This document shows, piece after piece, positions 42,152 to 44,202 of a stretch of DNA of 48,994 nucleotides. A program made the translations under genes and the position numbers. Source of the stretch: Rhodospirillaceae bacterium (lineage in GTDB: Bacteria > Pseudomonadota > Alphaproteobacteria > CACIAM-22H2); assembly GCA_022843945.1 (NCBI GenBank), contig JALHMR010000039.1:1-48994 (forward strand). The letters are read 5' to 3'. Every line of letters begins with the position of its first letter. Within the stretch, counting starts at the first letter, position 1. Under the pieces are notes generated by a model. The model saw nothing but the letters and a program-made list of their open reading frames with translations, was not told the DNA's origin and ran no database searches.

Positions 42152-42706
42152 ATGTTCGATCTTGATCGCTTCATCGAGAATTGCCGCGCCGCGGTACGCG
42201 AGGATCCTACCCACAAGGCCGCGCGCGAGGTCGTCGCCCGCGCCGTATCGGAGCCCGGTTCGGTGCTCAAGGCCCTGGGCGAGCCCAGACGCGCCGAGAT
42301 CCAGAAACTCTACCGCGCCGAGGATCTGACGATCATCAACGTCATCTGGGCGCCGCGCATGACCATCATGCCCCACGATCACCGCATCTGGGCGGTGATC
42401 GGCGTCTACACCGGCCGCGAGGACAACATCTTCTGGCGCCGGCTGGAGGATCAGCCGGGCCGGGTCGAGGCCGCCGGCGCCAAGGCGCTGAGCGCGGGTG
42501 ACGCAGCGCCGCTCGGCCGCGACGTCATCCATTCGGTGACCAACCCGATCCCGCGCCTGACCGGCGCCATCCACGTCTACGGCGGCGACTTCTACGCCAC
42601 CCCGCGGAGCGAATGGGACCCCGAGACCCTGCGCGAGGCACCCTACAGCGTCGACAAGACGCTGCGCCTGTTCGAGGAAGCGAACTCCATCTACGCCAAG
42701 GCTTGA
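42152..42706 (+). CDS. Cysteine dioxygenase-like cupin
   Basis: The 184-residue protein has the cupin metal motif [18 protein letters not shown] with His75, His77 and a downstream Glu90, and a second motif with His127 (GRDVIHSV) and His141 (AIHVYGG). This pattern is that of the predicted cysteine-dioxygenase-type enzymes (double-stranded beta helix), which oxidise thiols with iron and oxygen. The specific thiol is not predictable. It starts a three-gene operon with a pirin and an acetyltransferase, 8 bases apart from the pirin start. The ATG at 42152 removes an open upstream stretch of no coding character. Confidence 0.86.
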
Positions 42707-42714
42707 GGGCCCCG

Positions 42715-43609
<895 letters not shown>

Positions 43610-43617
<8 letters not shown>

Positions 43618-44086
43618 ATTCCGTATCACGCCGGTCGCCACGAAAGACGACCTCGCCGCCACTATCCGCCTGATCCGGGCCTACGCGGCGTCGCTGGATG
43701 TCGATCTGTCCTACCAGGATTTCGAGGCCGAGATGGCGGCCATGCCGGGAAAATACGCCCCGCCCGCCGGCGCGCTGCTGCTGGCCCGCGCGGCGGACAA
43801 TCAGGCGGTCGGCTGCGTCTGCCTGCGCCCGATCGAGCCCGAGGGCTGCTGCGAGATGAAACGCCTCTATGTCGCGCCGGCAGGTCGCGGCGCCGGGTTG
43901 GGCAAGACTCTGGTCGAGGCCGTGATCGACGAGGCGCGGCGCATCGGCTATCGCGAAATGAAGCTCGACACGCTGCCGTCGATGGCCTCGGCCAAGGTGC
44001 TCTATCGCCGGCTGGGCTTCGAGCCGACCGAGGCCTATTACGAGACGCCCGTGGTCGGCACCGCCTTCATGCGCCGCGCGCTCTAG
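43610..44086 (+). CDS. GNAT-family N-acetyltransferase with a non-canonical (AUC) start or frameshifted start
   Basis: The reading frame translates as a complete GNAT domain. Its first part, [15 protein letters not shown], followed by [20 protein letters not shown], is clearly homologous-looking N-terminal sequence of this family, then [23 protein letters not shown] and [14 protein letters not shown] for acetyl-CoA binding. The first in-frame ATG is only at 43733, which would delete about 40 residues of the domain. No ATG, GTG or TTG exists in frame before it. An ATC at 43610 (Ile-Pro-Glu-Phe-Arg) sits six bases after AAGGTG and may be the start; or ribosomes may shift +1 at CCC-TGA and make a pirin-acetyltransferase fusion. 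Substrate unknown. Confidence 0.75.
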
Positions 44087-44102
44087 TCGACCAATCAACA
44101 GT

Positions 44103-44191
44103 CGTCACCCCGGACAAGCACGCAAAGCGTGCGCGATCCGGGGTCCATCGTGCCGAAGGAACCATGGGCCCCGGCTTTCGCCGGGGTGACG
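44103..44191. repeat. Two-hairpin REP-like element with exact terminal inverted repeats
   Basis: CGTCACCCCGG (44103-44113) and CCGGGGTGACG (44181-44191) are exact 11-bp inverted repeats. Inside are a first hairpin, ACCCCGGA with TCCGGGGT (44107-44114 and 44137-44144) holding an inner GCACGC-AAA-GCGTGC, and a second hairpin, CCCCGGC-TTTC-GCCGGGG (44169-44186). It is intergenic, between converging genes, as REP-like or MITE-like units typically are. It resembles dispersed palindromes of other alphaproteobacterial genomes by memory only; I see one copy here. Confidence 0.75.
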
Positions 44192-44202
44192 ATCTGTTTC
44201 TT

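What the first reader, a model, noticed from the sequence alone, without database searches (positions are those of the whole stretch)
43599..43740. Acetyltransferase gene with no normal start codon, overlapping the pirin stop
The GNAT domain is continuous in frame from 43616, but there is no ATG, GTG or TTG in frame before 43733, which lies about 40 residues inside the domain. An ATC at 43610 follows AAGGTG at a normal ribosome-site distance, giving Ile-Pro-Glu-Phe-Arg at the start. The alternative is a +1 frameshift at the pirin end, where CCC-TGA could slip to give CCC-(T)-GAA and a pirin-GNAT fusion; CCC-U is a known shift-prone quadruplet. Either would be an unusual gene-expression device in a three-gene redox operon. 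A plain sequencing error that removed a start is also possible.
Basis: partly seen in the sequence, partly recalled or inferred. Interest (0 to 1): 0.55.

Follow-up and report, generated by a model that had tools for sequence, protein, structure and literature searches.

The report
Acetyltransferase gene without normal start codon
An apparently intact bacterial acetyltransferase gene begins on the stop signal of the gene before it and has no ordinary start codon; the odd-looking signals there can be explained as the tail of that earlier gene, so this looks like a one-off rearrangement that is at best weakly translated, not an evolved device.

Summary
The acetyltransferase (GNAT) frame is open from 43433 to 44086, has no ATG/GTG/TTG before 43733, and runs through the pirin stop (TGA 43615-43617). 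A start at 43733 would remove strand 1 and helix 1 of the predicted fold, so the true N-terminus lies near 43610. An evolved device is not supported: no second junction was found. None of 60 other pirin loci has this GNAT behind it, and 38 of 38 testable GNAT homologues have a canonical start. "ATC", "AAGGTG" and "CCC-TGA" are codons of a pirin tail; V-R/S-Y-P-stop occurs in 5 of 60 other pirins, one with the identical 12 bases and no GNAT. That argues against a lost ATG there and against a purpose-built slip site. Best reading: a lineage-specific junction left the GNAT without its own ATG, and AUC at -8 spacing to the pirin stop is its most plausible, weak, coupled start. Rivals: decaying gene, assembly error, +1 slippage. 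The same genome has an infC without a canonical start and a classical prfB +1 site, so both routes are plausible in this cell. Without a close relative carrying the junction it cannot be settled here.

The parts
42152..42706 (+). upstream gene of the putative operon, 184 aa from ATG 42152 (213 aa from GTG 42065); no Pfam match
42715..43617 (+). pirin family gene, 300 aa, ending V-R-Y-P-stop
   Evidence: PF02678 6e-34 and PF05726 8.7e-26; tail shared with five other pirins
43600..43605 (+). AAGGTG, Shine-Dalgarno-like; also codes Lys-Val of the pirin tail; 129 of 760 windows inside pirin pair at least as well
43610..43612 (+). ATC, most plausible (weak) start codon of the GNAT; -8 spacing to the pirin stop
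   Evidence: position fits the N-termini of homologues; initiation itself inferred
43612..43617 (+). CCC TGA, pirin last sense codon and stop; possible +1 slip site
   Evidence: sequence; slip-proneness of CCC_UGA from PMC5009743 passages
43610..44086 (+). GNAT acetyltransferase frame, 158 codons plus stop, no ATG/GTG/TTG before 43733
43733..43735 (+). first canonical in-frame start; lies past strand 1 and helix 1 of the predicted fold, so unlikely to be the functional start

Best explanation
A GNAT gene lies directly against the 3' end of a pirin gene in this genome and has no ATG/GTG/TTG of its own (shown). The first codon that is invariant among aligned homologues, Ile 43625, comes 8 bases after the pirin stop (shown). 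The junction probably arose by a small rearrangement that took the original start codon (inferred). Translation, if any, most likely begins at AUC 43610: ribosomes ending pirin at UGA 43615-43617 restart slightly upstream (-8 spacing), helped by AAGGTG, giving (M)PEFRITPV... at a low, pirin-dependent level (inferred). None of these signals needs to have evolved for the purpose, because they are the coding sequence of the pirin tail.
For: Homologues begin 6 to 28 residues up to and including the invariant Ile (window Ile6), 16 of 20 at 7-9; AUC gives 6, equal to L062. Codons 3-41 are nearly as conserved as the rest: 777 of 1337 (58%) against 2637 of 4189 (63%) identical over 36 homologues. The frame has no stop up to a C-terminus that aligns with those of homologues, with third-position GC like pirin's. 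-8 spacing (NTGNNTGA) is one of three enriched overlap spacings in prokaryotes (PMC12548453, passages); here the first codon is ATC. AUC is the infC start in Streptomyces and sigR starts with GTC (PMC5472188, passages). The own genome's infC frame has its first ATG/GTG/TTG only at codon 52 after the preceding stop. V[RS]YP-stop occurs in 5 of 60 other pirins, L129 with identical CGCTATCCCTGA and no GNAT.
Against: No expression data. AUC is expected to initiate poorly when IF3 is present: in vitro, AUC with the mismatched initiator anticodons UAU and AAU gave no product at 1.5 uM IF3 (PMC10158994, passages; AUC with the natural CAU anticodon was left out there). SD pairing is unremarkable. In L047, L051, L058 and L067 the only canonical start in reach lies 1 to 4 codons after the ATC position, so a later start, such as ATC 43625, is not excluded. 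No second genome shows the junction, so selection is not shown, and a recently dead gene would look the same.
Confidence: 0.45

Rival explanations
1. A gene in early decay: a small deletion or mutation took the start codon and the GNAT is now essentially unexpressed, with the rest of the frame not yet eroded.
For: The junction was found in this genome only; the signals at the junction can be explained by pirin coding; no notable RNA structure (z +0.84).
Against: No stop or frameshift in the whole domain, an R-G-A-G-L-G acetyl-CoA loop is kept (motif recalled; letters), and GC3 is host-like. Some translation by AUC or slippage is still expected from the sequence.
Confidence: 0.3
2. Sequencing or assembly error at or near the junction in a draft genome (82 contigs); the true sequence has an ordinary start.
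For: Only one assembly is available and no second junction was found. NTG starts at -8 spacing are enriched (PMC12548453), so a one-base miscall is a simple account. Only 9 of 60 other pirins have a tail of 8 or more residues here, and 4 of those 9 do not end in YP, so the tail is not strongly fixed in the family.
Against: The base in question belongs to the pirin's final proline codon. All five other pirins that have V-R/S-Y near the end continue with P-stop; an error would have had to recreate that proline by chance. The stop is at the same place in those five, so an indel inside the tail is unlikely.
Confidence: 0.15
3. +1 slippage of peptidyl-tRNA-Pro on CCC-U at the pirin stop makes a pirin-GNAT fusion of about 456 residues.
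For: CCC_UGA shifts +1 at 15% in E. coli pheL and 1.9% in Salmonella, is used in Listeria phage tsh, and half of 19 E. coli genes ending in it shift above 1% (PMC5009743, passages). This genome's prfB has the classical cassette AGGAGG CAT CTT TGA C, so its cells very likely use +1 shifting there.
Against: The SD-like AAGGTG ends 6 nt before CCC, against 3 nt before CTT in the own prfB; the base after UGA is A, not C; no notable RNA structure. Five of 60 other pirins (L129, L142, L147, L148, L151) end in CCC TGA and none of these has this GNAT behind it, so the site can be incidental.
Confidence: 0.1

Closest known systems
infC (AUU in E. coli, AUC in Streptomyces) and Streptomyces sigR (GTC)
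   Same: apparent use of a rare non-NUG start codon, here with an SD-like sequence upstream
   Different: those starts are tied to IF3 control (PMC5472188, passages); here there is one genome, no conservation and no experiment, and the ATC overlaps an upstream gene
Overlapping, translationally coupled gene pairs (NTGA, TGATG, NTGNNTGA)
   Same: downstream frame begins at -8 spacing to the upstream stop
   Different: the first codon is ATC and not NTG; coupling not measured
Programmed +1 frameshifting at CCC_UGA (Listeria phage tsh) and CUU_UGA (prfB)
   Same: shift-prone codon before UGA, +1 frame open into a conserved domain
   Different: no conserved cassette, SD-like element at a longer spacing, A after UGA, site explained by pirin coding

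Membership tests
GNAT acetyltransferase (PF00583) | domain match above curated cut-off | tested here: met
   62.4 bits against 20.7
Pirin (PF02678, PF05726) | both pirin domains above cut-off | tested here: met
   116.8 and 90.8 bits against 26.1 and 27
Genes with a non-NUG start codon (infC, sigR type) | no ATG/GTG/TTG where homologues start | tested here: met
Genes with a non-NUG start codon (infC, sigR type) | non-NUG start shared by relatives | tested here: not met
   38 of 38 testable homologues have a canonical start; no second junction found
Genes with a non-NUG start codon (infC, sigR type) | initiation shown by N-terminal peptide or start-codon mutation | not testable with these tools
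   needs experiment
Translationally coupled overlapping pair | stop and start within a few bases at an enriched spacing | tested here: met
   -8 spacing if ATC is the start; spacing classes from PMC12548453
Translationally coupled overlapping pair | downstream output depends on upstream translation | not testable with these tools
   needs reporter test
Programmed +1 frameshifting | shift site conserved together with the downstream frame | tested here: not met
   CCC-TGA at 5 of 60 other pirin ends, none of the five with this GNAT
Programmed +1 frameshifting | stimulatory SD at prfB-like 3 nt spacing, or stable structure | tested here: not met
   AAGGTG at 6 nt against 3 nt in the own prfB; fold of 43590-43700 z +0.84

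The most novel reading that the evidence does not exclude
The GNAT is deliberately kept on an AUC start overlapping the pirin stop, so that its output is low, tied to pirin translation and sensitive to IF3, as for infC and Streptomyces sigR; or a small, useful share of pirin is made as a pirin-GNAT fusion by +1 slippage on CCC-U.
Probability: 0.1. Interest if true: 0.5.

Novelty: new member of a known kind. Interest (0 to 1): 0.25.

Why it matters
If AUC is really used, it adds a case to the few characterised bacterial genes with non-NUG starts, which gene finders restricted to ATG/GTG/TTG cannot call correctly. It also shows how the tail of one protein can supply SD-like, start-like and slip-like sequence by chance, a caution when such signals are read from one genome.

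Tried and rejected
Rejected: start at 43733, because it removes strand 1, helix 1 and most of helix 2 of the model and codons 3-41 are conserved. Rejected: the closest GNAT homologue (L034, Microvirga massiliensis, 72%) as a second start-less case; it showed no canonical start from 20 codons before to 11 after the ATC position but has an ATG 22 codons upstream. Rejected: a conserved pirin-GNAT operon; of 93 GNAT loci and 60 pirin loci outside the window only L061 (Xanthobacter) holds both, with the pirin downstream of the GNAT.

Led nowhere: viral contigs (no relative); plasmids gave pirin tails and GNATs but no junction in the five regions opened; class and phylum searches for the GNAT (2 of 385 genomes at E 1e-45, one of them the window's own; 4 of 398, one of them the own); NCBIfam (no family above its cut-off for GNAT or pirin); solved structures (distant GNATs, best 3lod_A at 2.3e-15; pirins, best 6d0g_A at 5.7e-53); a paper search for pirin with GNAT and frameshift returned 0 papers. 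The SD comparison was not informative, and the reading-frame list of the window in the same call was not followed up.

Mended on checking: one search had counted CCC-TGA at 3 of 60 pirin ends because it looked past the stop in some loci; the recount gives 5 of 60. One search also showed that 4 of the 9 other pirins with long tails do not end in YP. Odds were kept.

Limits: GNAT starts were counted only for loci with a tblastn score of at least 150 bits: 39 besides the window's own, of which L050 is cut by a contig end, giving 38. Two pairs (L056/L126, L059/L124) look like the same locus fetched twice. The 60 pirin loci are all those fetched with a pirin match apart from the window's own three; 58 have at least 1 kb after the pirin stop, two have 958 and 965 bases. 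Class and phylum searches draw only a part of each group, and only the 30 best pirin loci were returned per search. Alignment A1 and the model used 20 homologues chosen by hand from those fetched; row L005 was entered one codon too long.

Full report
What is there. The window's pirin gene (42715-43617, 300 aa) ends GTG CGC TAT CCC TGA. The next frame, an acetyltransferase of the GNAT family, is open stop-to-stop from 43433 to 44086 and runs through the pirin stop; its first ATG, GTG or TTG is at 43733. Read from ATC 43610 it is 158 residues and matches Pfam Acetyltransf_1 at 6.3e-17; the pirin matches both pirin domains.

Where the protein must begin. Homologues up to 72% identical were found in other bacteria, the closest mostly Alphaproteobacteria by record title. 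Over 36 of them (score at least 165 bits) the N-terminal part (codons 3-41) is 58% identical (777 of 1337) and the rest 63% (2637 of 4189). An AlphaFold2 model from 21 sequences (mean pLDDT 94.4) puts strand 1 at residues 5-8 and helix 1 at 12-28. A start at 43733 (codon 42) would remove both. In 20 homologues aligned, the chosen start lies 6 to 28 residues up to and including an invariant Ile, 16 of 20 at 7 to 9; ATC 43610 gives 6, as in L062 (row L005 was entered one codon too long and is really 6). ATC 43610 is the only ATN codon in the GNAT frame between 43433 and that Ile codon, which is itself ATC 43625. Against a strict reading: in L047, L051, L058 and L067 the only canonical start in reach lies 1 to 4 codons after the ATC position, so a somewhat later start is not excluded.

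Is it conserved? No second junction was found. The one genus-mate held (G001, 93% complete) has no pirin at E 1e-60 and only weak GNAT matches, best E 1.4e-8. Of 93 GNAT loci and 60 pirin loci outside the window, L061 alone holds both genes, with the pirin downstream of the GNAT; so none of 60 other pirins is followed by this GNAT within the fetched stretch (at least 958 bases). All 38 testable GNAT homologues with a score of at least 150 bits have an ATG, GTG or TTG between the preceding in-frame stop (or the end of the stretch) and codon +8. So the missing start is particular to this genome as far as could be seen.

What the 'signals' are. Five of the 60 other pirins end in V-R/S-Y-P-stop (L119, L128, L129, L130, L139), with TAT CCG or TAT CCC before the stop; L129 (Indioceanicola profundi) has the identical CGCTATCCCTGA and no GNAT match. 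51 of 60 end within five residues of the F-I-P-L-P-like motif; of the nine with longer tails, five end in YP and four (L061, L095, L122, L131) do not. ATC (from TAT CCC), AAGGTG (from AAG GTG, Lys-Val) and CCC-TGA are thus readily explained as pirin coding sequence. Two consequences follow. First, a lost or miscalled ATG at 43610 is disfavoured, because an ATG there would replace the proline that follows V-R/S-Y in all five other cases. Second, the slip site and the SD-like element are not by themselves evidence of a device; CCC-TGA ends 5 of 60 other pirins. Pairing with a typed 16S tail gives -6.5 kcal/mol, reached by 129 of 760 windows within pirin. The RNA from 43590 to 43700 folds no better than shuffles (z +0.84).

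What the host can do. The same genome's infC frame has its first ATG, GTG or TTG only at codon 52 after the preceding stop, inside the conserved protein; ATT and ATA precede the conserved part, in line with the AUU and AUC starts of infC elsewhere (PMC5472188, passages). Its prfB carries AGGAGG CAT CTT TGA C, the classical +1 cassette (features from PMC5009743, passages). Both rare routes are therefore plausible in this cell. At the pirin end the SD-like element sits 6 nt before CCC, not 3, and the base after UGA is A, not C. It sits 4 nt before ATC, which suits initiation better than slippage (my inference). The -8 spacing of ATC to the pirin stop is one of three enriched overlap spacings (PMC12548453, passages). 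CCC_UGA is inherently slippery at about 1 to 15% in the enteric cases quoted (PMC5009743, passages), so a trace of fusion protein would be no surprise.

Judgement. The frame is intact and host-like in composition (GC3 0.873 for both genes), so the junction is either recent or the gene is still of use. I hold weak AUC initiation coupled to pirin termination as the likeliest reading (0.45), a decaying gene next (0.30), then error (0.15) and +1 slippage as the main route (0.10). The arrangement is unusual but isolated, and every signal in it has an ordinary possible origin; interest 0.25.

Literature seen: passages only of PMC5009743, PMC12548453, PMC5472188, PMC10158994, PMC6397469 and PMC9845219 (the last two not used for any claim); search listings otherwise. 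The study of initiation from all 64 codons is not held and no number is taken from it.

Noticed in passing
L160 (G000:C49, around and upstream of 1115): prfB of the same genome has a classical +1 frameshift cassette (AGGAGG CAT CTT TGA C).
   Followed up: partly
L159 (G000:C1:141962-142171, minus strand): infC of the same genome has no ATG/GTG/TTG before codon 52 of its frame; ATT or ATA is the likely start codon.
   Followed up: partly
44100-44195: Between the GNAT and the peroxiredoxin gene lies a GC-rich stretch with inverted CGTCACCCCGG / CCGGGGTGACG-like segments that looks like a dispersed palindromic repeat (by eye); copy number not tested.
   Followed up: no
L061 3001-4857: In a Xanthobacter autotrophicus MAG the GNAT and a pirin lie about 550 bases apart on one strand in the opposite order, pirin second.
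   Followed up: no
L034 2037-3471: In Microvirga massiliensis the GNAT start is separated by one base from the stop of a gene whose translation looks like MarR plus GNAT (by eye).
   Followed up: no
42152-42706: The gene before pirin, 8 nt upstream of it, has no Pfam match at E 0.1.
   Followed up: partly
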